64,000 nt of DNA from the NCBI RefSeq assembly GCF_014961315.1, contig NZ_CP063141.1, positions 1,674,001-1,738,000 on the forward strand, written 5' to 3'. Made by a program: the position numbers and the translations under genes. The notes beneath the pieces are model-generated. The model saw only the letters and a program-made list of their open reading frames with translations. It was not told the DNA's origin and made no database searches. This DNA comes from Thermoflavifilum sp. (GTDB taxonomy: Bacteria; Bacteroidota; Bacteroidia; Chitinophagales; Chitinophagaceae). This document shows positions 9,455 to 47,263 of this stretch, one piece after another (position 1 is the first letter of the stretch; each line of letters opens with the position of its first letter).

Positions 9455-9826
9455 TTAGGCATTAAGGTTATCAAATTCTTTTTGAATAGCACTTTGCTGA
9501 ATCCCGGCCCTGCGTTTGGCGTTGTATTCTACCGCGTACTTGTCGAGGCGGGTAATCATGTGACGCATCACCTGTTCATCGCGATTGAGCTGAACGGTGA
9601 GTTTACTATTGAGGTCGGATGGCGCCTGATATTCCAGCACCCAGTAAAGACCGGTCGTCTTCTTCTGGATGGGATACGCCAGTGATCTGAGTCCCCATGG
9701 TTCCTGATAAACGATCACACCGCCGTTTTCCTGGATAAAATCCACATACTTCTTCTGTGCAGCGGCATATTCTTCTTCAGAAAGAATCGGGGTAAAGATC
9801 ACCATCAATTCATAATTGTTCATCAT
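9455..9826 (-). CDS. rpsF: 30S ribosomal protein bS6
   Basis: A 123-residue bS6, first gene of the rpsF-rpsR-rplI operon. The core NNYELMVIFTPILSEEE and the segment GLRSLAYPIQKKTTGLYW are typical. Two adjacent ATG codons (9826 and 9823) compete as start; the second gives MNNYELM, the usual beginning. A strong Bacteroidota promoter lies about 30 bases upstream, and htpG is divergent. In many bacteria bS6 with bS18 binds its own leader, but the leader here is short and I see no obvious structure for that. Confidence 0.97.
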   Translation of the reverse strand: MMNNYELMVIFTPILSEEEYAAAQKKYVDFIQENGGVIVYQEPWGLRSLAYPIQKKTTGLYWVLEYQAPSDLNSKLTVQLNRDEQVMRHMITRLDKYAVEYNAKRRAGIQQSAIQKEFDNLNA

Positions 9827-9853
9827 ACCCGGTGTTTAAAGAATTTGGGAGTG

Positions 9854-9885
9854 CAAAGATAGGAGAATTTATGAAACCATACCAA
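9854..9885 (-). promoter_or_regulatory. Promoter of the rpsF-rpsR-rplI operon
   Basis: On the minus strand a TTG (-33) is followed, after 21 bases, by TATCTTTG, an exact TAnnTTTG -7 element. The predicted start of transcription is about 20 bases before the rpsF ATG. The spacing and both boxes fit the consensus recognised by the Bacteroidota primary sigma factor. Confidence 0.65.
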
Positions 9886-9918
9886 GACAATCTGTCAGCA
9901 TCCGCCGGTGGCATAGGG

Positions 9919-9945
9919 TTTGAAAACGGGCAAGTCGTAGTTTTG
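9919..9945 (+). promoter_or_regulatory. Candidate promoter of htpG
   Basis: TTTG at 9919-9922 and the exact -7 element TAGTTTTG at 9938-9945. The 15-base spacer is a few bases shorter than usual. The -7 box ends 20 bases before the htpG ATG. I see no CIRCE-type inverted repeat that would indicate HrcA control. Confidence 0.45.
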
Positions 9946-9965
9946 CCTGCAAAATCCAGATTGCC

Positions 9966-11816
9966 ATGCAAAAAGGTCAGATTCGCGTTCACACGGAAAA
10001 TATTTTTCCTATTATTAAAAAATTCCTCTACTCTGAGCATGAAATTTTCCTGCGGGAACTCATCAGCAACGCTGTGGATGCCACACAAAAGCTGAAGATG
10101 CTGGCCAACAGCGGCGAATTTAAAGGTGAATTAGGGACTTTAGATATCGAGGTGAAATTAGATGTAGCCCAGCGCACCCTGACCATTTCCGATCGGGGGA
10201 TAGGGATGACCGCCGAAGAGGTGGATCGCTACATCAATCAGGTGGCTTTTTCCAGTGCAGAAGAATTTCTCAGTAAATACAAGGGCGACGGCGCTTCCAT
10301 CATCGGACATTTCGGATTGGGTTTTTATTCGGCATTTATGGTTAGTGAACGGGTGGAAATTCTTACCCGTTCTTATCGTGATGAGGCTCAGGCAGTTCGC
10401 TGGATATGCGATGGAAGTCCTGAATACGTTCTCGAAGAAGCCGAAAAGCCATGGCGGGGAACCGATGTCATCCTGCACATTCATGAAGATAGCCGCGAAT
10501 TTCTGGAGCCCGAACGCATCCGGACTATTTTATTGAAATACTGCAGATTTTTACCGGTTCCGATTTATTTTGAAGGAAAGCAAATCAACAACACCGAACC
10601 CATCTGGGTGAAAAGGCCGTCAGAGCTTACTTCTCAGGATTATCAACAATTCTACAAAGAATTATACCCCTATCATGAGCCGCCGCTATTCTGGATTCAT
10701 CTGCATGTCGACTATCCTTTTCATTTAAATGGGGTACTCTATTTTCCCAAAATCACCCATAGCTTCGATATTCAAAAAGACAGAATTCAGCTTTATTGCA
10801 ACCAGGTATTCGTGACTGATGAGGTAAAAGATATTGTGCCCGAATTTTTAATGCTTTTACATGGTGTGATCGATTCGCCTGATATTCCCTTAAATGTAAG
10901 TCGCAGCTATTTGCAGGGCGATCCAAATGTACGCAAGATCAACAGCCATATTACCAAAAAAGTGGCGGATAAGCTGGAGGACATCTTCAAGCAAGATCGG
11001 AAGGAATTAGAAGAAAAATGGGAATACATTGGTTTGTTTGTGAAATATGGCATGATGACCGACGATAAGTTCCGGGAAAGGGCACAGACGTTTTTACTCA
11101 TGCAGGACGCCTTTGCTTCAGCAACCTGGTACACGCTGTCTGAGTATCGCGAAAAAGCAGCTTCCTTACAAACCAATCCGGATCGTAAGCTGGTAATTTT
11201 GTACACCACCGATCCAGTCCAGCAATACAGCTACCTGCAGGCTGCGCGCGAAAGAGGTTATCTGGTGGTGAAGCTTGATTCGATTATTGATGCGGCTTTC
11301 ATCCAGGCGATGGAAGAGAAATGGGACGATGTGGTGTTTACGCGTGTGGATGCAGATATTCCAGAGCGGTTGATCAAACGGGAAGAAAGCTCGCATAGTG
11401 TGCTCACTGCCCAGCAGGAAGCCCGGTTAAAGGAGCTATTTGCAAAGGAGATACCCGAACCTTCGTATCGCGTGGAACTGAAGGGACTTTCACCCGATAC
11501 CCAACCCGTGGTGGCCACCAGACCCGAAATGAGTCGCCGATTGAAAGAAATGGCGGCTATGAGTGGACAGGCTGCGAGCTGGTACGGAAAGATTCCCGAT
11601 GAAGTGGTGCTCACGGTGAATACCAATCATCCGATATTTCAGCAGATTCTGCAAGAAAGCCGTGAAGAACAGCAGCGAAAAATGATTCGCAATCTGGCCG
11701 ATCTGGCCTTGCTTTCGCAGCAAATGCTCAACGGTGAAGCACTGAACCGTTTTATCCAGCGGAGTATTGAGCTGATGGGTGGCATCAAAAAATCATCTAT
11801 CATTCTGCCTTCCTGA
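9966..11816 (+). CDS. htpG: Molecular chaperone HtpG (Hsp90 family)
   Basis: A 616-residue bacterial Hsp90. The N-terminal GHKL ATPase domain has all its motifs: ELISNAVDA (catalytic glutamate and Mg-binding asparagine), DRGIGM, and GHFGLGFYSAF for the ATP lid. The middle domain has the conserved SRSYLQGD segment with the catalytic-loop arginine. The C-terminal part supports dimerisation. It lacks the charged linker of eukaryotic Hsp90. It is a single gene, divergent from rpsF, with the convergent permease gene ending 14 bases after its stop. Confidence 0.97.
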   Translation: MQKGQIRVHTENIFPIIKKFLYSEHEIFLRELISNAVDATQKLKMLANSGEFKGELGTLDIEVKLDVAQRTLTISDRGIGMTAEEVDRYINQVAFSSAEEFLSKYKGDGASIIGHFGLGFYSAFMVSERVEILTRSYRDEAQAVRWICDGSPEYVLEEAEKPWRGTDVILHIHEDSREFLEPERIRTILLKYCRFLPVPIYFEGKQINNTEPIWVKRPSELTSQDYQQFYKELYPYHEPPLFWIHLHVDYPFHLNGVLYFPKITHSFDIQKDRIQLYCNQVFVTDEVKDIVPEFLMLLHGVIDSPDIPLNVSRSYLQGDPNVRKINSHITKKVADKLEDIFKQDRKELEEKWEYIGLFVKYGMMTDDKFRERAQTFLLMQDAFASATWYTLSEYREKAASLQTNPDRKLVILYTTDPVQQYSYLQAARERGYLVVKLDSIIDAAFIQAMEEKWDDVVFTRVDADIPERLIKREESSHSVLTAQQEARLKELFAKEIPEPSYRVELKGLSPDTQPVVATRPEMSRRLKEMAAMSGQAASWYGKIPDEVVLTVNTNHPIFQQILQESREEQQRKMIRNLADLALLSQQMLNGEALNRFIQRSIELMGGIKKSSIILPS

Positions 11817-35421: not shown

Positions 35422-35877
35422 TTGACAGGCTTTCTCGGAGAATATGAGGCCACGCTCGATGCTAAAGGGCGTTTTTTGTTGCCAACCGGTTTTCGCAAGC
35501 AACTGGGAGAAGGCGATAGCCACCAGTTTGTGCTGAACCGGGGTTTTGAAAAATGCCTGTCGCTTTACCCTATGTCGGAATGGATGCCTTTATTTGAGCA
35601 GTTGAAGAAGCTGAATGATTTTGATCCGCAGGTAAGGGCTTTCAAGCGCTATTTTCTGGCAGGTGCCACGCTGGTGGAGCTCGATAGCGCTTCAAGGATA
35701 TTATTGCCCAGGCATCTGATGGAGTATGCGGGTTTAACGCGGGATATCATATTGGCAGCCAATACCAATAAAATTGAGATCTGGGATAAACAGAAATATC
35801 AGGAGCTCTTTGACAATTTTTCACCTGAAGCCTTCAGCCAGCTGGCCGGGCGGGTGATGGGAGGTAATCAGCCATGA
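35422..35877 (+). CDS. mraZ: Transcriptional regulator and division protein MraZ
   Basis: A 151-residue MraZ with two SpoVT/AbrB-like domains. It begins TGFLGEYEATLDAKGRFLLP, with the second copy near ELDSASRILLPRHL. MraZ is a DNA-binding regulator of the dcw cluster. The start is the TTG at 35422: an in-frame stop lies 10 bases upstream, and homologues begin at this residue. Its last four bases overlap the start of rsmH. The region just upstream holds a 10-bp-period repeat that may be its own binding site. Confidence 0.94.
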   Translation: MTGFLGEYEATLDAKGRFLLPTGFRKQLGEGDSHQFVLNRGFEKCLSLYPMSEWMPLFEQLKKLNDFDPQVRAFKRYFLAGATLVELDSASRILLPRHLMEYAGLTRDIILAANTNKIEIWDKQKYQELFDNFSPEAFSQLAGRVMGGNQP

Positions 35878-36776
35878 ACCATCCAGAAGTTTATCATGAA
35901 CCGGTGATGGTGCAGGAAGTGCTGGAGGGATTGCAAATCCGGAAGGATGGAATATATGTGGATGCAACCTACGGTGGAGGGGGGCATACACGGGCTATCC
36001 TGGAGCGTCTGGGCGCAGGTGGGAAAGTGATTGCTTTTGATCAGGATGAGTCGGTGCGTGCTCATGTCATGCGTGATGAACGCCTGATTTTCGTGCCGGA
36101 AAGCTTTGTGTATCTCAAGCAATTCTTGCGCTATTATCATACGATACCGGTGGATGGGATTCTGGCCGATTTAGGTGTATCGTCTTTTCAACTGGATACC
36201 CCTGAGCGAGGGTTTTCCCTCCGTTATGATGCTCCTCTGGACATGCGTATGGACCGGCGCAGGGAACATACCGCGGCCGACCTGTTGCGCACAGCCTCAG
36301 AGGCCGAGCTGCATCGCCTGCTGGAGGCTTATGGTGAGGTAAGAAATGCGCGCACAGTGGCCCGCGTACTTGTGCAGGCCCGTGCAGAAAAGCCTATCCA
36401 GCGCACGGGAGAATTGGTGCAACTGCTTGAACCCCTGATTCGGGGCAACAGGCATCAATATCTGGCGAGGGTGTTTCAGGCATTACGCATAGCTGTAAAC
36501 GACGAACTCCATGCGCTGGAAAGCTTTCTTCGGCAGGCGGCCGAAGTACTGAAGCCAGGTGGACGATTGGTCGTTATCAGCTTCCATTCACTGGAAGACC
36601 GCATCGTGAAGCAGTTTATGAAAGGTGCCGATGCAACGCAGGCGACCCAATCGCATGCTGTCTGGCGCATGCTCACCCGAAAACCCCTGCAGCCCACACC
36701 CGCCGAGGTGAAGCGTAATCCCAGATCGTCGAGCGCTCGATTGCGCGTGGCCGAAAAGTTATCCTTACCATCCTGA
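35874..36776 (+). CDS. rsmH: 16S rRNA m4C1402 methyltransferase RsmH
   Basis: A 300-residue SAM-dependent methyltransferase (MraW), modifying the P-site nucleotide C1402 of 16S rRNA. It starts NHPEVYHEPVMVQEVLEGL. The SAM-binding motif is VDATYGGGGHTRAIL, followed by ILADLGVSSFQLDTPERGFS and a late ISFHSLEDRIVKQF. The ATG overlaps the mraZ stop codon (ATGA), so it is translationally coupled. It is followed by the ftsL-like gene after 37 bases. Confidence 0.97.
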   Translation: MNHPEVYHEPVMVQEVLEGLQIRKDGIYVDATYGGGGHTRAILERLGAGGKVIAFDQDESVRAHVMRDERLIFVPESFVYLKQFLRYYHTIPVDGILADLGVSSFQLDTPERGFSLRYDAPLDMRMDRRREHTAADLLRTASEAELHRLLEAYGEVRNARTVARVLVQARAEKPIQRTGELVQLLEPLIRGNRHQYLARVFQALRIAVNDELHALESFLRQAAEVLKPGGRLVVISFHSLEDRIVKQFMKGADATQATQSHAVWRMLTRKPLQPTPAEVKRNPRSSSARLRVAEKLSLPS

Positions 36777-36813
36777 ATTTTTCATCGAAACATGATGGAT
36801 AAATAATTACCCG

Positions 36814-37188
36814 ATGGCAAAACAGCAATATCAACCGGAGTCATCAATGGAGCAGGTGCACGCAAAGGGTGAACCGAAAAAGCACAGGTGGGCTTACCGG
36901 CGCATCCTGTTTCAACACGAGTGGGTGATCAGGCATTTGCCCTTTGTGTTTTACCTCTCCTGTCTGGCATTGGTTTACATAGCCAACGGGCATCAGGCTG
37001 AAAAGAAAATCAGAACAATGAACCAGTTGCAGAAAGAGGTGAAAACGCTTCACTGGAAATACCTGGAAGCAAAAAGTGATGTGATGTTTCAGAGGAAATA
37101 CAGTGAAATAGCACGGCAGGTTGCTCCGTGGGGCTGGAAAACTTCATCCCGACCTCCTTTTGTACTGGTTGTGGATACAACGAAATGA
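36814..37188 (+). CDS. ftsL: FtsL-like division protein
   Basis: A 124-residue bitopic protein. A basic cytoplasmic N-terminus of about 40 residues is followed by a membrane segment at about 44-60 (PFVFYLSCLALVYIANG), then a periplasmic heptad-like segment (EKKIRTMNQLQKEVKTLHWKY) fit for a coiled coil with a FtsB/DivIC partner. Sequence similarity to proteobacterial FtsL is low; the call rests on topology and position between rsmH and ftsI. ftsI begins three bases after its stop. Confidence 0.82.
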   Translation: MAKQQYQPESSMEQVHAKGEPKKHRWAYRRILFQHEWVIRHLPFVFYLSCLALVYIANGHQAEKKIRTMNQLQKEVKTLHWKYLEAKSDVMFQRKYSEIARQVAPWGWKTSSRPPFVLVVDTTK

Positions 37189-37191
37189 AGC

Positions 37192-39264
37192 ATGGATATC
37201 AAACAGGATATTCTATGGCGGGTTTATCTCAGCTTCATGGGGATGGCGGTAGTAGGCATCGTCATCCTGGGGAAGATTTTCATCATTCAACATATTCAGG
37301 GCAATTACTGGAGAAGTATGGCCGATAGCTTGCAGGAACGATATGTGACGATGGATGCCGAGCGGGGCACCATTTATTCCGATGATGGGGAAATGCTTTC
37401 CACCTCGGTTCCATTTTTTGATATCCATCTGGATATGATGGCCGATGGGTTACGGGCAAATCAGGGAAAATTATTTCGGGAAAATGTGGATTCGCTGGCA
37501 TGGGGTCTTTCTGCCTTGTTTCGCGATCATCCTGCTTCCTGGTATCGATCGTTTTTATGGAAAGCTTATCGCAGTCGGGAACGGTATCTAATGTTCAAAA
37601 AAGATCTGGATTTTAAAACTTATCAGCAACTCATGCAATTGCCGCTTTTCCGGCTTGGCAGGTATCGCAGTGGAATGATTGCGGAAATGCATGAAAAACG
37701 CATGAACCCTTATGGTTTGCTGGCCAATCGTACCATAGGGCTCTGGCGGCCCAATGCACCAAACGTAGGTCTGGAGGCTACTTACGATAGTGTGTTGCGC
37801 GGCAAAGACGGCCGGCAGCTGGTACGTCGGGTGGCGGCAGGCACCTACGCACCCGTTGAAGGTTATACGCTGGAGCCGGAAAATGGAAAAGATATCGTCA
37901 CCACGATTGATGTGTATATCCAGGATATAGCCGAGCAGGCCCTGTATCAGATGCTCGATTCTGTTCAGGCTCAATATGGTACCTGTCTGGTGATGCAGGT
38001 GAAAACCGGACAGATCAAAGCTATTGCCAATCTGGGTCGCCAGTCCGACGGCACTTACTGGGAAGATTACAATTATGCGCTGATGAACACAGAGCCCGGG
38101 TCAATTTTTAAGCTCGCTACTTTGATTGCCGTGCTGGAAGACCATCTGGTTAGTCCTCAAAGCCAGATTAATCTGTATCGTGGCGAGCTAAAATTTGGAA
38201 ATCGTACCGTATATGATGCGGAAAAACATCATGAAACCTGGGTGAGTGTAGAGAAAGCTTTAGACCTGAGTTCAAATGTAGGATTCGCCCAGCTGGCCAA
38301 TCTTTATCGCGACCATCCGATGAAATTCATCCAACATCTGCGTGCGCTGCATTTAGATCGTCCAACGGGTATTGATTTAATCGGAGAACAGCCTCCTTTG
38401 ATTAAAACACCCGGATCGCGTACCTGGAGTGCCACCACATTACCCTGGATGGGATTTGGATATGAAGTACTGGTAAGTCCCGTGCAAATGTTAACCCTTT
38501 ACAATGCCGTGGCAAATGATGGCTGGATGATGAAACCTTATCTGGTGCAATCCATCCAGGATTTTGGCTCGCCTTTGAAGGTCTTTTCACCGGAGAAAAT
38601 AGAAAAAATTTGTTCCGATACGGTGTTGCATCAAGTACAGCGGATGTTGCGGAGTGTAGTTACAGATGGCACTGCCCGGAAGCCTTTTCTGGGTGCGCCT
38701 TATGCCGTTGCAGGAAAAACGGGTACAGCTCTGGTTGCCGATGGTCGGGCAGGATACGGCAATAAGGTTTACCAGTCCAGCTTTGTGGGATATTTCCCGG
38801 CTGATGATCCGCAATACTCCTGCATTGTGGTTATACGCAGTCGGCCCCATCCCCGCATCTATTATGGTGCGGATGTGGCGGCACCCGTATTTCGGAAGAT
38901 TGCCGATCAGCTCTATGCCCTGTACCTGGCACCCGATGCAGCACCTCGCATGCCCCATCCGCGAATGGATACCATACGCTGGGGCATACGTACGATTTCA
39001 ACACGGGCAAAGCAGCTTGCGGCTAAGTGGAAGGACATCCCGGTGGATGCACTGGACGGGCAGAGCAGGATGATGGCGGCATCAAACGCTGCTGGTGATG
39101 TAGTACCCGATCTCACCGGTGTAGGTCTCCGGGATGCTGTACGCATCCTGGAACAAAAAGGATTAAGAGTTGATTTTACGGGTGCAGGCCGGGTGGTGCA
39201 ACAATCCCTGCCTGCCGGAACTCCGGTTCGCCCCGGACAACACATTCAATTGATTTTAAATTGA
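37192..39264 (+). CDS. ftsI: Division-specific penicillin-binding protein FtsI with PASTA domain
   Basis: A 690-residue class B penicillin-binding protein, the septal peptidoglycan transpeptidase. It has one N-terminal membrane segment (about 12-28) and a pedestal domain. The transpeptidase domain has the SxxK motif in EPGSIFKLA, SSN in DLSSNVGF, and KTG in AGKTGTA. A single PASTA domain forms the C-terminus (DVVPDLTGVGLRDAVRILEQKG onward). It follows the ftsL-like gene directly. murE begins with an ATG three bases past its stop. Confidence 0.95.
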   Translation: MDIKQDILWRVYLSFMGMAVVGIVILGKIFIIQHIQGNYWRSMADSLQERYVTMDAERGTIYSDDGEMLSTSVPFFDIHLDMMADGLRANQGKLFRENVDSLAWGLSALFRDHPASWYRSFLWKAYRSRERYLMFKKDLDFKTYQQLMQLPLFRLGRYRSGMIAEMHEKRMNPYGLLANRTIGLWRPNAPNVGLEATYDSVLRGKDGRQLVRRVAAGTYAPVEGYTLEPENGKDIVTTIDVYIQDIAEQALYQMLDSVQAQYGTCLVMQVKTGQIKAIANLGRQSDGTYWEDYNYALMNTEPGSIFKLATLIAVLEDHLVSPQSQINLYRGELKFGNRTVYDAEKHHETWVSVEKALDLSSNVGFAQLANLYRDHPMKFIQHLRALHLDRPTGIDLIGEQPPLIKTPGSRTWSATTLPWMGFGYEVLVSPVQMLTLYNAVANDGWMMKPYLVQSIQDFGSPLKVFSPEKIEKICSDTVLHQVQRMLRSVVTDGTARKPFLGAPYAVAGKTGTALVADGRAGYGNKVYQSSFVGYFPADDPQYSCIVVIRSRPHPRIYYGADVAAPVFRKIADQLYALYLAPDAAPRMPHPRMDTIRWGIRTISTRAKQLAAKWKDIPVDALDGQSRMMAASNAAGDVVPDLTGVGLRDAVRILEQKGLRVDFTGAGRVVQQSLPAGTPVRPGQHIQLILN

Positions 39265-39266
39265 GC

Positions 39267-40734
39267 ATGGTGTTATTGCGCGACATATTAGCAGATATCC
39301 CCCTGGTCAAACTCATCGGAACCAGTGATATACCTATTGCCGAGATTACGGCTGATTCGCGGCAGGTAAGACCGGGTTCATTGTTTTTTGCTCTGCGCGG
39401 CTTGCATACCGATGGACATCAATTCATTGAGCAGGCTGTGGCTCAAGGTGCCGTGGCCGTTGTATGTGAAGAAATACCCGAACACCCTTCCCCTCATATC
39501 AGTTATGTAACGGTGAGCGATAGTGCCCTGGCATGTGGCATCATGGCCGGACATTTTTTTGGTGATCCGTCGAAACACATGCAGGTAGTGGGCGTTACCG
39601 GTACAAATGGCAAAACCACAGTCGTGACCTTACTCTATCAATTGTTTTCCCGACTGGGATTTCGTACGGGGCTTATTTCAACCGTGCAAAATATCATTGT
39701 AGATAAACCAGAACCGGCTACCCACACCACTCCCGACGCTATTCAGCTTCATCGACTGCTGGCACGCATGCATCAGCAGGGATGTTACACATGTATTCAT
39801 GGAGGCCAGTTCGCATGCCATCCATCAGAAGCGCATTGCAGGCGTGCATTACACCGGAGGTATTTTCACCAATATCACCCATGATCATCTGGATTATCAC
39901 AAAACTTTTGAAAACTATTTAAAAGCTAAAAAGGCGTTCTTTGATCAATTGCCGGCTTCAGCCTTTGCACTGACGAACATCGATGATCGCAATGGAATGG
40001 TCATGGTGCAAAGTACGCGTGCAAAAATTGCGACGTATGCCCTGAGAAAAAAAGCTGATTTCAAAGCCAGAATTATTGAAAATCATCTCACCGGTCTGCA
40101 AATCGAGATTGATCATCAACTGGTACATAGCCGGCTCATTGGTGAATTCAATGCATATAATTTGCTTGCTGCATATGCTGCTGCCAGGCTACTGGGGCAG
40201 GAAAAACAGGAAACCTTGCGCATATTAAGCGATTTGAAAGGCGCTGAAGGCCGGTTCGATTATCTGATTTCTCCTAACCAGCATATCATCGCTATTATCG
40301 ATTATGCGCATACGCCCGATGCGTTAAAAAATGTATTGCAAACCATTTTAGGCTTTAAGCAATCATCACAACGCATCATCACGGTTGTGGGTTGCGGTGG
40401 AGATCGCGATCGGACGAAGCGTCCCGAAATGGCGCTCATTGCTGCGCATTTTAGTGATCAGGTGATTTTCACATCCGATAATCCAAGAAGTGAAGATCCG
40501 CAGGCTATTATCGATGAAATGAAAGCGGGCCTTTCTGCATCCATGCAGGCTAAGACGTTGTCGATTGTCGATCGGAAAGAAGCCATCCGCACCGCTTGCA
40601 TGTTGGCACAGCCCGATGATATTATTCTGATTGCCGGAAAAGGTCATGAAAAATATCAGGAAATACGGGGAGTGAAATATCCATTTGATGATAAAGAAGT
40701 AGTGAAAGAAATCTTTGCATCATCCGGTAAATGA
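39267..40734 (+). pseudogene. murE: MurE ligase gene, interrupted by a one-base frameshift
   Basis: UDP-MurNAc-tripeptide synthetase, read in two frames. Part 1 (39267-39797) carries the N-terminal domain and the P-loop GTNGKTT, then leaves the reading frame and stops at 39884. Part 2 (from 39799) resumes at MEASSHAIHQKR and includes HLDYH, the C-terminal domain, and TSDNPRSEDP, whose DNPR marks meso-diaminopimelate as substrate. Joining CYTCI to MEASS by removing one base at about 39795-39798 restores a normal-length MurE with no other defect. Since the gene should be essential, a sequencing error is the simplest cause, but the site is not a homopolymer. mraY follows seven bases after its end. 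Confidence 0.9.
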
Positions 40735-40741
40735 AGCAGGT

Positions 40742-41998
40742 ATGCTATACTATTTGTTCACATATTTAAAAGCACATTTCGATCTGCCCGGTGCAGGCGT
40801 ATTTCAATATATTACTTTCCGAGCCACCATGGCTATTCTGCTTTCCCTGATCATTTCTCTGTTTGCCGGCAAGCGGATATTGCTTTTCTTACAACGCAAG
40901 CAAATTGGTGAAACAGTACGTCAGCTGGGGCTTAGCGGAGAAAATCAAAAAGCAGGTACACCCACCATGGGCGGATTAATTATTCTTGCATCCATTATTA
41001 TTCCCACATTGTTATTTGCCCGACTTGAAAATGTATACATCATTCTCATGTTGATATGCACATTATGGCTCGGGTTTATTGGCTTTCTCGATGATTATAT
41101 TAAAGTGTTCAAGAAAAATAAAGAGGGTCTTGCAGGAAAATTTAAAATTCTGGGGCAGGTGGGTTTGGGACTCATTGTAGGATGTACTTTATATTTTAAT
41201 GATCATGTGGTGATCATGCGGGAAATTATTGGTAAACCCAGACTTGCGCAATACGAAAAAGTGGTTGCCGACACCACAGCGATGAAAGAAGGTAAACGCC
41301 AGCGATTTGTCGAGGTGAAAACGCCCATTACTACCATCCCGTTTGTAAAAAGCCATGAGTTTAATTACGCTCGATTGATTTCCTGGATTGGCAAAAATGC
41401 GGAACAATACACATATATCGTATATATTTTGATTGTGGTATTTATCATTACCGCTGTATCGAATGGTGCAAATATCACGGATGGCCTCGACGGACTTGCG
41501 ACGGGCGTTTCGGCCATTATTGGCGCCTGTCTCGGCATATTTGCTTATGTATCGGGTAATATCAATTTTGCTTCTTATCTCAACATCATGTACATTCCTA
41601 ATCTTGGCGAACTTTCCATTTTCATCGGTACGTTTGTAGGAGCATGTGTTGGTTTTCTCTGGTACAACGCTTATCCCGCACAGATATTTATGGGTGATAC
41701 GGGCAGCCTGGCACTGGGCGGCATCATTGCTTCACTTGCCTTCATTGTACGAAAAGAATTATTGATTCCTATTTTTTGTGGAATCTTTCTGGTGGAGAAT
41801 ATTTCGGTATTGATTCAGGTCATGTATTTCAAATACACCAAACGAAAATATGGAGAGGGAAGAAGGATATTTAAGATGGCGCCTTTACATCATCATTATC
41901 AGAAGTTAGGATATCACGAAAGCAAGATAGTCGTGCGTTTCTGGATCGTGGCTGTTTTTTGTGCGGTGTTTTCAATTGCTACATTAAAACTCAGATGA
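40742..41998 (+). CDS. mraY: Phospho-N-acetylmuramoyl-pentapeptide transferase MraY
   Basis: A 418-residue polytopic enzyme forming lipid I from UDP-MurNAc-pentapeptide and undecaprenyl phosphate. About ten membrane segments are visible. The catalytic aspartate motif is [15 protein letters not shown], with [12 protein letters not shown] and the later [11 protein letters not shown] and PLHHHYQ histidine region. Compared with E. coli, it has a longer periplasmic/cytosolic loop (about residues 165-215), normal for Bacteroidota. The ATG at 40742 gives MLYYLFTYL; an earlier TTG would overlap murE. Confidence 0.96.
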
Positions 41999-42005
41999 AT
42001 GCAAT

Positions 42006-43340
42006 ATGGCTGAAAAAGTCGTCATATTAGGTGCAGGCGAGAGCGGTGTGGGAGCAGCTCTGCTGGCTGTGAAGCAGGGATATGAGGTATGGGTTTCCGA
42101 TGCGGGAACCATAGCAGATAAATATAAACAGGAGCTGAAGGCTTCAGGTATTGCTTTTGAAGAACGCGTACACAGTTTTGATAAAATTTTTGAAGCCGAT
42201 TTAATTATTAAAAGCCCTGGAATTGCAGAAAACACACCTGTTATGCAGGCGGTTAGATCAAGATCTAAACCGGTGATCAGTGAAATTGAATGGGCTTATC
42301 GTTTCTGCAACCAGGCCACGATTATTGCGATTACGGGTACCAATGGGAAGACCACGACAACCGCATTGATCCATTATCTTTTGAAAAACTCCGGAATATC
42401 AGCAGCCTGCGTTGGCAATATAGGCAATAGCTTTGCCAGGCAGGTTGCTACCTCACCGGAACCTTATTATGTTGTAGAAGTAAGCAGTTTTCAGTTAGAT
42501 GATATTGAAACCTTTCATCCGCATGTTGCCGTTTTGCTTAACATCACAGAGGATCATTTAGATCGGTATAAAAATATGGAAGCGTATGCTGCTTCCAAAT
42601 TCCGCATTACGGAAAATCAGACGGAGGAAGATTATTTCATTTACTGCATGGATGATGCTTACACAAGAAAATTCTTTAAAAAAAATATTCGTTCACAACT
42701 TTTACCTTTTAGCATTATGGAACAGGTTAAACAGGGAGCCTATTTGCAAGATGGCCAGATTCACATTCGCATCCATGATGATGAATGTATTTTTTCGGCC
42801 GATGAATTATCACTCAAGGGTAAACACAACATGTATAACTCTATGGCTGCGGGGATTGCTGGTAAAACCATGAATATCCGGAATGAGAAAATCAGGGAAA
42901 GCCTGGCAACGTTTAAAGGTATTGAACACCGGCTTGAATATGTGGCAACCATACGTGGAGTGGAATTCATTAACGACAGCAAGGCGACGAACGTCAATTC
43001 CGTGTGGTATGCTCTGGAATGCATGCAAAAGCCGGTCATCCTCATCATGGGTGGAATTGACAAAGGCAATGATTATAGCATCATTCGCGATCTGGTGAAA
43101 GAAAAAGTCAAGGCAATAGTTTGTTTAGGAAAAGATAATCGAAAAATTAATGAAGCATTCCGGGATGATGTGCAGTTGATGGTAAATACTTCTTCGATGA
43201 AAGAGGCCGTAGAGGCTGCATTTCATTTTGCAAGTCCGGGTGATGTGGTATTGCTTTCGCCGGGTTGTGCAAGTTTTGATTTATTTAAAAACTATGAAGA
43301 TCGAGGACACCAGTTTAAAGAAGTGGTGAAAAGTTTATGA
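42006..43340 (+). CDS. murD: UDP-N-acetylmuramoylalanine-D-glutamate ligase
   Basis: A 444-residue Mur ligase adding D-glutamate to UDP-MurNAc-L-alanine. The N-terminal Rossmann domain starts EKVVILGAGESGVGAAL. The ATPase P-loop is TGTNGKTTTT near residue 115. Other features are the VEVSSFQLDDIE motif, EDHLDRY, and the C-terminal INDSKATNVNSV with LSPGCASFDLFKNYEDRG. Here the same ligase motif that is broken in murE is intact. It follows mraY by seven bases and is followed by ftsW after 19. Confidence 0.97.
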   Translation: MAEKVVILGAGESGVGAALLAVKQGYEVWVSDAGTIADKYKQELKASGIAFEERVHSFDKIFEADLIIKSPGIAENTPVMQAVRSRSKPVISEIEWAYRFCNQATIIAITGTNGKTTTTALIHYLLKNSGISAACVGNIGNSFARQVATSPEPYYVVEVSSFQLDDIETFHPHVAVLLNITEDHLDRYKNMEAYAASKFRITENQTEEDYFIYCMDDAYTRKFFKKNIRSQLLPFSIMEQVKQGAYLQDGQIHIRIHDDECIFSADELSLKGKHNMYNSMAAGIAGKTMNIRNEKIRESLATFKGIEHRLEYVATIRGVEFINDSKATNVNSVWYALECMQKPVILIMGGIDKGNDYSIIRDLVKEKVKAIVCLGKDNRKINEAFRDDVQLMVNTSSMKEAVEAAFHFASPGDVVLLSPGCASFDLFKNYEDRGHQFKEVVKSL

Positions 43341-43359
43341 AACATCAAATGCTGAACTC

Positions 43360-44691
43360 ATGAAACATCTGATGCAGCAGGTGAAGGGCGACAGGGTCAT
43401 CTGGGGTGTGGTGGTCATGCTTTCGCTGATTAGCATGCTTGCGGTGTACAGCTCCACAGGGATGCTTGCATACCGAATGCAACATGGCCACAATGAATAT
43501 TATTTGTTCAAGCAGGTCTCGGTGTTATTGTTTGGATTACTTATCATTTATCTTTCGCATCGTGTGCATTATATGATATATGCACGTGTGGCAAAGATGG
43601 GTGTGATTGTAGCCGTTCCCCTGCTGGTATATACCCTGCTGTTTGGTTCTCATGTGAATGATGCCAGTAGATGGATCCGTTTGCCAGTGATTAACCTCAC
43701 TTTTCAAACCTCCGACTTCGCCAGGCTTGTTTTATTTATGTATGTATCCCTGCAACTGGCCAGGCATCAAGAGCAAATCAAGGATTTTCACAAGGGATAT
43801 AAACCCGTGCTGGTAGCCATGCTGGTGATATGCGGATTAATCGCACCGGCTAATTTATCTACCGCATTGCTGTTGGGTGCAAGCTGTTTGCTGTTGTGTT
43901 TTATCGGCCGGATATCGATCAGGCATTTGGTGATTACCCTGCTGGTGCTGGCTTTACCCTTGCTGCTGCTCATGGCTATTGCCTCTCTGACCTATCATCC
44001 CGATGATGCACAAACGGCATCCGTTCATCATCAACAGGCCTGGTATGAGAAATTGATTGAGCGTGCAGAGGGGAAAGGTCGTGTCGCCACCTGGATTCAT
44101 CGTGTACAGGATTTCATGTATGCTTCGCATGAAGATGCACCCTATCAGGTAGAACAGGCAAAGATCGCCATTGCCAGAGGAGGGCTGTTTGGCAAAGGAC
44201 CGGGCAATAGCATTCAACGCAATTTTCTACCGTATCCCTATTCCGATTTCATTTTTGCCATTATTGTGGAAGAATATGGATTGGCAGGAGCAACTCTGCT
44301 GGTGATGTTATATCTCATTCTGTTGTTTCGCTGTATTCGTCTGTTCAGGAAATGTCCATACGCTTTCGGTTCATTTTTATGTATTGGATTGAGTTTTACG
44401 CTGGTTATTCAGGCTTTTGCAAACATGGCTGTAGCCGTGAATCTATTGCCGGTAACGGGCGTCACGCTGCCGTTGGTGAGCATGGGAGGTTCATCGATAT
44501 GGTTCACCAGCCTCTCGATAGGTATCATATTAAGTGTAGCCAGGCATATGCAGGAGCAGGAAGAATGGGAAAAATTACATGCATCATCATCGGATAACCA
44601 TATCCAGAACTGGATAGATCAGTTGAACCATGCTGAAGATACAGTACAGCAACCGGCCTATGGGAAGATGGAATCGTCATCGCTCGTGTAG
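43360..44691 (+). CDS. ftsW: Peptidoglycan glycosyltransferase FtsW
   Basis: A 443-residue SEDS-family polymerase acting with FtsI at the septum. About ten membrane segments can be seen. Signature regions are SISMLAVYSSTG near the N-terminus (segment 1), NDASRWIRLP, and the C-terminal PVTGVTLPLVSMGGSS. The large periplasmic loop (about residues 205-260) carries the catalytic aspartate region. A C-terminal cytoplasmic tail of about 50 polar residues extends beyond the last helix. murG begins 17 bases after its stop. Confidence 0.95.
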   Translation: MKHLMQQVKGDRVIWGVVVMLSLISMLAVYSSTGMLAYRMQHGHNEYYLFKQVSVLLFGLLIIYLSHRVHYMIYARVAKMGVIVAVPLLVYTLLFGSHVNDASRWIRLPVINLTFQTSDFARLVLFMYVSLQLARHQEQIKDFHKGYKPVLVAMLVICGLIAPANLSTALLLGASCLLLCFIGRISIRHLVITLLVLALPLLLLMAIASLTYHPDDAQTASVHHQQAWYEKLIERAEGKGRVATWIHRVQDFMYASHEDAPYQVEQAKIAIARGGLFGKGPGNSIQRNFLPYPYSDFIFAIIVEEYGLAGATLLVMLYLILLFRCIRLFRKCPYAFGSFLCIGLSFTLVIQAFANMAVAVNLLPVTGVTLPLVSMGGSSIWFTSLSIGIILSVARHMQEQEEWEKLHASSSDNHIQNWIDQLNHAEDTVQQPAYGKMESSSLV

Positions 44692-44708
44692 TGATAATAA
44701 CAGGTTAT

Positions 44709-45890
44709 ATGAACGAACAAAAGGGATCATATCGAATTATCATCAGCGGCGGGGGGACGGGTGGACATATCTTTCCGGCCATCGCCATTGCGCGTGCATT
44801 GCAACAACGCGAGTCCGATATGCAAATTTTGTTTGTTGGGGCAAAAGGTAAAATGGAGATGGAAAAAATTCCGCAAGCCGGCTATGCCATTCGTGCACTC
44901 GATATCAGGGGGATGGATCGTGGTAAATGGTGGAAAAATATCACGCTTCCTTATTTTGTGTTGAAAAGCCTGTTGCAGGCCAGGAATATTTTACATGAGT
45001 TCAAACCGCACGCGGTGGTGGGTGTGGGCGGCTATGCCAGTTTTCCGATATTGTTTGCTGCCCAGCAAAAAGGAATCGATACATTTATCCAGGAACAGAA
45101 TTCCTATGCCGGAAAGGCCAACCAGTGGCTGGGGAAAAAGGCTACGCGGGTTTTTGTAGCCTATGAGGGGATGGACAGATTTTTTCCGCCTGAGAAAATT
45201 ATGATTACCGGCAATCCGGTAAGACAGGATATTTTATCGACGCATATTTCCAGAGACGAAGCATGTCGATATTTTGAACTGGATCCACAACTCCCTGTCG
45301 TATTGGTTGTGGGAGGCAGTCAGGGCGCTCGTTCCATCAATCTGGCCATTTTGCAAAAAATTGAATTATTGATCTCCCATCGCATTCAATTGATCTGGCA
45401 AACGGGCAAATGGAATTTTGAAGAAATACAGCAGCGGCTTCAATCAACTACCACATCATCATCGTATCATAAGCGGATCAAAATCATGCCCTTTATCGAT
45501 GATATGGCAAAAGCTTACGCAGCGGCCGACGTGGTGGTATCTCGTGCAGGAGCAATCGCCATTGCTGAATTATCTGTGATGCAGAAGCCGGCTATTCTGG
45601 TACCTTTCCCGTTTGCAGCAGAAGATCATCAAACGCATAATGCAACCATGCTGGTTGAACAACAGGCAGCCTGTATGATTTCCGATGCAGAGGCGGGCGA
45701 GAAGCTGGTGCCTACCATCATTACCTTATGTGTTGACGAAGAAAAACGAAATACTTTACGCGAGCATATTCGCAAATGGGCGATACGAGATGCCGATCAA
45801 CGGATCGCTGATGCAATCCTGCAGGTTTTACAACAAAAACGATATCGGTCGTCAAGTTCAAAACAAAATCCCATAAATCATCATTCATGA
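44709..45890 (+). CDS. murG: UDP-GlcNAc:lipid I N-acetylglucosamine transferase MurG
   Basis: A 393-residue GT28 glycosyltransferase making lipid II on the inner face of the membrane. The N-terminal G-loop is SGGGTGGHIFPAIAIA, followed by VGVGGYASFP and EQNSYAGKAN. The C-terminal donor-binding region has VVGGSQGARSIN and AADVVVSRAGAIAIAEL. The ATG at 44709 was preferred over a GTG six codons upstream, since it lies close to the conserved region. The last four bases overlap murC. Confidence 0.97.
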   Translation: MNEQKGSYRIIISGGGTGGHIFPAIAIARALQQRESDMQILFVGAKGKMEMEKIPQAGYAIRALDIRGMDRGKWWKNITLPYFVLKSLLQARNILHEFKPHAVVGVGGYASFPILFAAQQKGIDTFIQEQNSYAGKANQWLGKKATRVFVAYEGMDRFFPPEKIMITGNPVRQDILSTHISRDEACRYFELDPQLPVVLVVGGSQGARSINLAILQKIELLISHRIQLIWQTGKWNFEEIQQRLQSTTTSSSYHKRIKIMPFIDDMAKAYAAADVVVSRAGAIAIAELSVMQKPAILVPFPFAAEDHQTHNATMLVEQQAACMISDAEAGEKLVPTIITLCVDEEKRNTLREHIRKWAIRDADQRIADAILQVLQQKRYRSSSSKQNPINHHS

Positions 45891-47263
45891 AACTCAACGG
45901 TGCAGATATTAAACGCGTTTATTTCATTGGCATAGGCGGCATTGGCATGAGTGCACTGGCCCGTTATTTTCATGAACATGGAGTAAAGGTCAGTGGATAT
46001 GATCGCACACCATCAGCACTATGCAGGGAATTGGAGCAGGAAGGCATATCCATTCATTATGATGAAAACCTTGACGCCATCGATCATCAGGCCGATATGG
46101 TTGTGTACACGCCTGCTGTTCCGGCCGATCACAGCGAATTACTCTATTATCGGCATCAGGGTTATCCGTTGTTCAAACGCAGCGAAGTATTGGGCATGAT
46201 CTGCAAAAGCATGAACACCATAGCCGTTGCGGGTACACACGGGAAAACCACGACCACTACATTAATTGCGCATATACTCAGGCATTGCGGGCGAACGCCT
46301 TATGCTTTCTTAGGCGGGATTTCTGCCAATTATCACACCAATTACTGGCGTGGAATTGAGCCCATTGTCGTAGCGGAAGCAGATGAATATGACCGTTCTT
46401 TTCTGCAGCTGCAACCTTATATCGCTGTGGTTACAGCCACAGACGCCGATCATCTGGATATTTATGGTACAGTGGAAGCCATGCAGGATGCCTATTTGCA
46501 ATTTGCACAACAATTGAAGCCAGGAGGATATTTAATTTATCATAAAGGTATAGCCCGGGAACATGAATGGCGAAAAATTGCCACATGGAGCTATCATCTA
46601 AGCGATCAGAAAGCAGATTTTTATGCTGTTGATGTACGCATTCATGACGGCGCTTATCATTTTAATGTACGCGCATGTGAAATACTCATCGAAGACCTGT
46701 GTTTGCATACGGGTGGACTTTACAATGTGGAGAATGCAGTGGCGGCCATTGCCGTAGTAAGACAATTAGGCATTGAAGCGGAGCAAATCAGGGAAGCGAT
46801 TCAACTTTTTAAAGGTGTGAAACGTCGTTTTGAATATGTTTTAAAACGCGAGGATATTGTATTCATTGATGATTATGCGCATCATCCGCAGGAATTAAAA
46901 GCTTTATTAACCAGTGCAAGAGCTTTGTATCCCGGTCGGCCTTTGCACATAGCTTTCCAGCCGCACCTGTATTCCCGTACGCGTGATCTGGCACAAGAAT
47001 TTGCTGCCAGTTTAGACCTGGCGGATGAGGTGTGGCTTTTGCCTATTTATCCAGCAAGAGAATTGCCCATTGCGGGTGTGAGCAGCGAACTGATTCGTGA
47101 TAAGATGCAAAAGGCAAAAGTAAGTTGTGTGGATAAAGATGCGCTGATTGTGCAGATTGCCGAAAAAAAACCTTCGCTGTTCATCACAGCGGGAGCCGGT
47201 GATATCGATCAGCTCATTCCGAAGATTGTACATATTTATCAATCCAATACCTATGCAGCGTAA
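45887..47263 (+). CDS. murC: UDP-N-acetylmuramate-L-alanine ligase
   Basis: A 458-residue Mur ligase adding L-alanine to UDP-MurNAc. Motifs are FIGIGGIGMSALARYF at the N-terminus, the P-loop AGTHGKTTTTT, EADEYDRSFL, DADHLDIY, and FIDDYAHHPQE of the C-terminal domain. The start codon overlaps the murG stop as ATGA, and its end overlaps the ftsQ start by 11 bases. The order murG-murC-ftsQ without murB and ddl between is usual for the phylum. Confidence 0.97.
   Translation: MKLNGADIKRVYFIGIGGIGMSALARYFHEHGVKVSGYDRTPSALCRELEQEGISIHYDENLDAIDHQADMVVYTPAVPADHSELLYYRHQGYPLFKRSEVLGMICKSMNTIAVAGTHGKTTTTTLIAHILRHCGRTPYAFLGGISANYHTNYWRGIEPIVVAEADEYDRSFLQLQPYIAVVTATDADHLDIYGTVEAMQDAYLQFAQQLKPGGYLIYHKGIAREHEWRKIATWSYHLSDQKADFYAVDVRIHDGAYHFNVRACEILIEDLCLHTGGLYNVENAVAAIAVVRQLGIEAEQIREAIQLFKGVKRRFEYVLKREDIVFIDDYAHHPQELKALLTSARALYPGRPLHIAFQPHLYSRTRDLAQEFAASLDLADEVWLLPIYPARELPIAGVSSELIRDKMQKAKVSCVDKDALIVQIAEKKPSLFITAGAGDIDQLIPKIVHIYQSNTYAA

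What the first reader, a model, noticed from the sequence alone, without database searches (positions are those of the whole stretch)
39781..39810. One-base frameshift splits murE inside the ATPase domain
The frame 1 sequence reads GCYTC-I and the +1 frame resumes as MEASSHA without loss of a residue, so exactly one extra base lies at about 39795-39798. The downstream half is fully conserved, including DNPR. The shift site is not a homopolymer, which makes a routine run-length sequencing error less likely. An ATG of the second frame sits right at the junction. MurE is needed for cell-wall synthesis, so either the assembly is wrong, a second murE exists, or decoding shifts frame here.
Basis: partly seen in the sequence, partly recalled or inferred. 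Interest (0 to 1): 0.6.

Follow-up and report, generated by a model that had tools for sequence, protein, structure and literature searches.

The report
Likely sequencing error breaks murE
One extra base in an essential cell-wall gene is very probably a leftover error in this genome assembly, because the gene is unbroken at that place in every relative compared and both of its halves still look like working code.

Summary
The frameshift is in the sequence, but the finding misplaces it. Against the four congeneric genomes held, the window has one extra base in the T pair at 39785-39786, about ten bases upstream of the stated 39795-39798. The own genome (one contig, 2.83 Mb) has no second murE over the cut-off. 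Of 115 loci compared, 114 (109 distinct proteins) cross the site in one frame; the exception is this genome. Both halves show purifying selection, the N half slightly weaker than five neighbouring genes. No slippery site or unusual RNA fold was seen. In 600 kb of this assembly, 3 of 443 compared genes have a confirmed one-base break: murE, the only metX, and a third gene. A relative's assembly has at least one such break too. A residual sequencing or assembly error is the best explanation; a very recent real mutation is a weak second; frameshift decoding or a split enzyme is improbable. Reads were not available.

The parts
39267..39782 (+). N half of murE in its normal frame, with P-loop GTNGKTT; aligned to E. 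coli MurE 1e8c chain residues 20-175
   Evidence: NCBIfam TIGR01085 164 bits, profile 2-159, scan of 39261-39881; PDB alignment; codon comparison with G001-G004
39785..39786 (+). T pair where the four congeners have one base: the one-base frameshift
   Evidence: DNA alignments with G001, G002, G003, G004 (L010 and L012); G001 and G002 again
39787..40734 (+). C half of murE, frame resumed as THVFMEASSHA to the normal stop, with DNPR motif
   Evidence: NF001126 430 bits for 39799-40731, profile 177-484 of 486; 1e8c residues 181-488; pN/pS 0.06 against G002 and G001
39799..39801 (+).
   Evidence: Met at this place in 114 of 114 loci that cross the site
39882..39884 (+). TGA that ends the N-half frame after the shift
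   Evidence: the C-half frame is open upstream to 39703, so the two frames overlap 39703-39881
35422..47263 (+). Division and cell-wall cluster around murE (mraZ, mraW, ftsL-like, ftsI, murE, mraY, murD, ftsW, murG, murC)
   Evidence: ORFs; names other than murE recalled from the translations, not scanned; mraW, ftsI, mraY, murD and ftsW have no internal stop

Best explanation
The cell has an ordinary murE, and the extra base at 39785-39786 is a residual sequencing or assembly error in this single-contig genome. Shown: the extra base relative to congeners, no other murE over the cut-off in the assembly, an unbroken frame at this place in every other locus compared, purifying selection on both halves, and other one-base breaks in conserved genes of the same assembly. 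Inferred: that the base is absent from the real DNA.
For: Of 115 loci, 114 cross the site in one frame and only this genome does not; the 114 hold 109 distinct proteins, five being repeats. The 4 congeners among them are unbroken. No second murE over the cut-off, so a real break should be lethal for a peptidoglycan maker (established knowledge of MurE). pN/pS against G002 is 0.17 (N half) and 0.06 (C half), with mraW, ftsI, mraY, murD and ftsW at 0.04-0.16; at codons where G001 and G002 agree and G000 differs, the C half has 79 synonymous and 14 nonsynonymous. In 600 kb compared with G002, 3 of 443 ORFs have a confirmed internal one-base break in G000: murE, metX and one other gene. metX has no other copy and is matched in one piece in 4 of 4 congeners (one of these matches, in G004, includes a TAA); the third gene is matched in one open piece in 4 of 4. 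Insertions after T and at runs of two are a reported error type of a long-read assembly (PMC12007338, passages).
Against: No reads were seen, and the sequencing platform of this genome is unknown. The murE case is an insertion at a T pair, while the other two are losses next to G runs, so they need not share a cause. The third gene also has a TAA inside its G000 match and lower identity (64% over one piece, against 76-86% for whole matches in three congeners), so it may be really decaying. G002 has at least one similar break in 448 ORFs, so G000 is not grossly worse than a relative. G000 keeps more G/C runs of six than G002 (57 against 28 per 600 kb), no sign of general run compression. The N half's pN/pS (0.171) is slightly above all five neighbours tested.
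Confidence: 0.88

Rival explanations
1. A real and very recent mutation in the sequenced material (a variant within the culture or population, or a strain that compensates in an unknown way), too young to show relaxed selection.
For: The sequence as given is broken; selection statistics cannot see an event of the last few generations; other conserved genes are broken too, one of them with a further stop inside.
Against: MurE is essential where peptidoglycan is made (established knowledge), and there is no second murE over the cut-off; the five neighbouring genes tested have no internal stop.
Confidence: 0.08
2. Ribosomal frameshifting (+1) near 39785 joins the two frames into full-length MurE.
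For: Both frames are open and conserved across the join, with an overlap of 39703-39881.
Against: None of the 114 other loci has the shift. The site GGA-UGU-UAC has no stop and no slippery run, and tRNA-Cys would re-pair poorly (inference). The RNA around it folds no better than shuffles: z +0.92, 173 of 200 shuffles fold at least as well. A paper search for murE with frameshifting listed 8 of 9 papers, none with a title on this.
Confidence: 0.03
3. A true two-piece MurE: the N piece ends at 39884 and the C piece starts at the ATG at 39799, and they assemble.
For: An ATG in the right frame.
Against: The ATG is a conserved internal Met in 114 of 114 loci. The pieces would split the protein at about residue 176-181 of E. 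coli MurE, inside the ATPase domain by recalled domain borders; the C piece would lack the four residues before the Met, and the N piece would carry a nonsense tail.
Confidence: 0.01

Closest known systems
MurE, UDP-MurNAc-L-Ala-D-Glu--2,6-diaminopimelate ligase (TIGR01085, NF001126)
   Same: Both pieces match the family over adjoining profile positions; DNPR motif; place in the division cluster (neighbour names recalled)
   Different: One extra base splits the frame, in this genome alone of the 115 loci compared
Gene-fragmenting indel errors of long-read assemblies (PMC12007338, passages seen)
   Same: Single-base insertion in a conserved gene that is unbroken in relatives; other such breaks in the same assembly
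   Different: The sequencing method of this genome is unknown and no reads were seen
Programmed +1 frameshifting as in prfB (recalled)
   Same: A +1 shift would restore the product
   Different: No stop or slippery codon at the site, no conservation, no stimulating structure found

Membership tests
MurE ligase | Match to the curated MurE model | tested here: met
   C half 347-354 bits, cut-off 257.3; N half 164 bits, below the cut-off as a fragment
MurE ligase | One continuous reading frame | tested here: not met
   One extra base at 39785-39786 in the sequence as given
MurE ligase | P-loop GTNGKT and DNPR motif | tested here: met
   Read in the translations; motif meanings recalled
Programmed ribosomal frameshift | Shift conserved in relatives | tested here: not met
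   114 of 115 loci have one frame at the site; the only exception is this genome
Programmed ribosomal frameshift | Slippery site with stop or rare codon | tested here: not met
   GGA UGU UAC ACA at the site, zero-frame stop only at 39882; read by eye, codon rarity not computed
Programmed ribosomal frameshift | Stimulatory RNA structure | tested here: not met
   z +0.92 for 39776-39875; no Rfam match in 39000-41000; pseudoknots not tested
Pseudogene | Relaxed selection after the break | tested here: not met
   pN/pS 0.06 in the C half and 0.17 in the N half against G002; five neighbours 0.04-0.16
Assembly or sequencing error | Reads disagree with the assembled base | not testable with these tools
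   No reads held
Assembly or sequencing error | Other one-base breaks in conserved genes of the same assembly | tested here: met
   3 of 443 compared ORFs including murE; metX and the third gene are matched in one piece in 4 of 4 congeners, with one TAA in the metX match of G004; G002 has at least one such break too

The most novel reading that the evidence does not exclude
The base is real and this bacterium makes full-length MurE from a newly shifted gene by +1 frameshifting at a site unlike known programmed sites.
Probability: 0.03. Interest if true: 0.6.

Novelty: not a real feature. Interest (0 to 1): 0.08.

Why it matters
It matters as a caution. A single-contig genome rated 100% complete can still carry one-base breaks in essential genes, which automatic annotation may call pseudogenes. 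If the base were real it would matter far more, as either an unconventional decoding event or a cell-wall gene lost without a visible substitute.

Tried and rejected
Second murE in the genome: rejected; of 13 places that match, only the window's C half passes the cut-off. Re-initiation at the ATG: rejected, conserved internal Met. RNA signal: no Rfam match in 39000-41000, fold no better than shuffles. General homopolymer compression of the assembly: not supported; G000 has more G/C runs of six than G002.

Rows left out of the frame survey. Of 8 ORFs of 443 flagged in G000 against G002, five were aligned: three are internal one-base breaks (murE, metX, one other); two (upstream of rpsF, window about 9458-10040, and o128) I read as spurious 5' extensions of the query ORF. 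Three (o98, o194, o457) have their break within the first 50 residues and were not aligned; they are not in the count of 3. Against G001, 4 of 165 were flagged: murE, the rpsF case, an outer-membrane protein gene with two longer gaps, and one read as an upstream extension. In reverse, 9 of 448 G000 ORFs were flagged against G002: two are the broken pieces of murE and metX themselves; three were aligned, of which o324 is a clean one-base break in G002 while o370 (one-base gaps) and o111 (a seven-base gap) stay unresolved; four were not aligned. Of 169 G000 ORFs compared with G001, 3 were flagged, one of them murE itself; the other two, and the flags between G001 and G002 (2 of 163 and 4 of 164), were not aligned.

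Naming the genome: no tool named the genus. G001 and G002 share 90.5% DNA identity over the compared stretches and about 79% with G000. Size and G+C of Thermoflavifilum aggregans in PMC6767994 (passages: 2.84 Mbp, 46.0%) are near those of G001 and G002, so Thermoflavifilum is only a guess. PMC10215811 (sections 7 and 15 and passages) describes a genome of that genus from Nanopore and Illumina data, but nothing ties it to this window; passages of PMC11349053 did not help. A 16S comparison gave a match in one of four congeners, over 282 bases, and was not pursued. In the family-wide murE search 284 of 294 genomes pass the cut-off; its row list was cut, so intactness was not counted from it.

After the first submit was returned I checked the counts again and ran, which showed five repeats among the 114 loci and that THVF itself stands in only 22 of them. 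I also corrected the metX statement (a TAA in one congener's match) and added the TAA and low identity of the third gene.

Full report
What is there. ORFs 39261-39884 and 39799-40734 on the plus strand are two pieces of one murE. Scanned separately, they match adjoining parts of the same MurE models: NF001126 positions 3-176 and 177-484, TIGR01085 positions 2-159 and 161-471. They align to E. coli MurE (1e8c) residues 20-175 and 181-488. The gene sits between ftsI and mraY in a division and cell-wall cluster (neighbour names recalled from the translations).

Where the shift is. Aligned with the four congeneric genomes held, the window shows one extra base in the T pair at 39785-39786 (also seen against L010 and L012, where the other two congeners were given on the wrong strand). 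The difference matters: the ATG at 39799 is not at the junction but four codons past it, and it is Met in 114 of 114 relative loci that cross the site. The four residues before it, THVF, are the same in three of four congeners and in 22 of 114 loci, with similar residues in the same frame elsewhere. The ATG is therefore not a start that arose with the break.

Is it shared? Not in anything compared. Of 115 loci (110, one from the own genome and four second copies of the congeneric genes), 114 cross the site in one frame; the one that does not is this genome. The 114 hold 109 distinct proteins. One of them shows a stop, at the C end of the alignment, far from the site. In a search of 39 genomes, 37 exceed the MurE cut-off, this genome among them by its C half; the two that do not are drafts of 140 contigs (98% complete) and 250 contigs (57% complete), not looked into.

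Is there another murE? The genome is one contig of 2,828,742 bases, 100% complete by the tool's estimate. Thirteen places match the MurE model; only the window's C half exceeds the curated cut-off, and the places outside this gene score at most 65.9 bits and are partial.

Selection. Against G002, pN/pS is 0.171 for the N half and 0.061 for the C half; mraW, ftsI, mraY, murD and ftsW lie at 0.161, 0.131, 0.037, 0.100 and 0.114, so the N half is slightly above all five. At codons where G001 and G002 agree and G000 differs, the C half has 79 synonymous and 14 nonsynonymous codons, with 83 of 106 base changes at third positions; the N half has 32 and 18, with 42 of 62. Both halves have thus been read in their normal frames until now or until very recently. 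A long-standing pseudogene is unlikely. An error, a fresh mutation and successful decoding are all compatible with this.

Decoding signals. The site reads GGA UGU UAC ACA, with no stop codon and no slippery run; the frames overlap from 39703 to 39881. The RNA around it folds no better than shuffles (z +0.92; 173 of 200 shuffles fold at least as well), and Rfam has no match at gathering scores in 39000-41000.

Quality of the assembly. I compared 600 kb of G000 (21% of the genome) with 600 kb of G002 and 200 kb of G001, which are largely collinear. Of 443 G002 ORFs with a well-covered counterpart in G000, 8 were flagged as changing frame. Alignment confirmed three internal one-base breaks: murE, metX (homoserine O-acetyltransferase; both pieces match TIGR01392) and a gene at G000:C1:1447032-1447900. 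Two others I read as false alarms at 5' ends, and three with breaks near the N end were not aligned. metX and the third gene lack one base at or next to a run of five G. metX has no other copy in G000; in 4 of 4 congeners it matches in one piece over at least 349 of 358 residues, although the match in G004 includes one TAA. The third gene matches in one open piece in 4 of 4 congeners, but its G000 copy also has a TAA inside the match and lower identity, so it may be really decaying. Against G001 an outer-membrane protein gene shows two longer gaps. G002 has at least one comparable break in 448 ORFs, so such breaks are not peculiar to murE or to this genome.

What the literature says. The Kastor paper (PMC12007338; search listing, passages) reports gene-fragmenting indels in long-read assemblies: most errors lie at homopolymers, but many insertion errors follow A or T without tie to any particular homopolymer and are more frequent at runs of two or five. 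A T after a T fits that, if this genome rests on long reads, which is unknown. A search for papers with both murE and frameshifting held 9 and listed 8, none with a title about this (titles and abstract starts seen only).

Verdict. A residual sequencing or assembly error is the most likely cause (0.88), then a fresh real mutation (0.08), programmed or spontaneous frameshifting (0.03), and a two-piece enzyme (0.01). These numbers are judgements. Reads over 39770-39800 would decide.

Noticed in passing
L160:6083-7137 (G000:C1:1926083-1927137), outside the window: The only metX of this genome is split by one missing base at a run of five G; it matches in one piece in 4 of 4 congeners, one of those matches including a TAA.
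   Followed up: partly
L166:7032-7900 (G000:C1:1447032-1447900), outside the window: Another gene split by one missing base next to five G, with a further TAA inside its match; open in 4 of 4 congeners. It looks like a family 19 chitinase, a label recalled from the residues; no NCBIfam match.
   Followed up: partly
L131:7217-9456 (G000:C1:1747217-1749456), outside the window: An outer-membrane protein gene (OMP_b-brl_3) lacks stretches aligned as 35 and 53 bases relative to G001, and its match runs over three frames.
   Followed up: no
G002:C1:938791-941837 (L140 to L141): A 1016-residue ORF of G000 is broken in G002 by one missing base: a comparable break in a relative's assembly.
   Followed up: no
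G027 (same order, 98% complete draft), whole genome: No MurE match over the cut-off; best E-value 3.1e-18. Possibly a gap in the draft.
   Followed up: no
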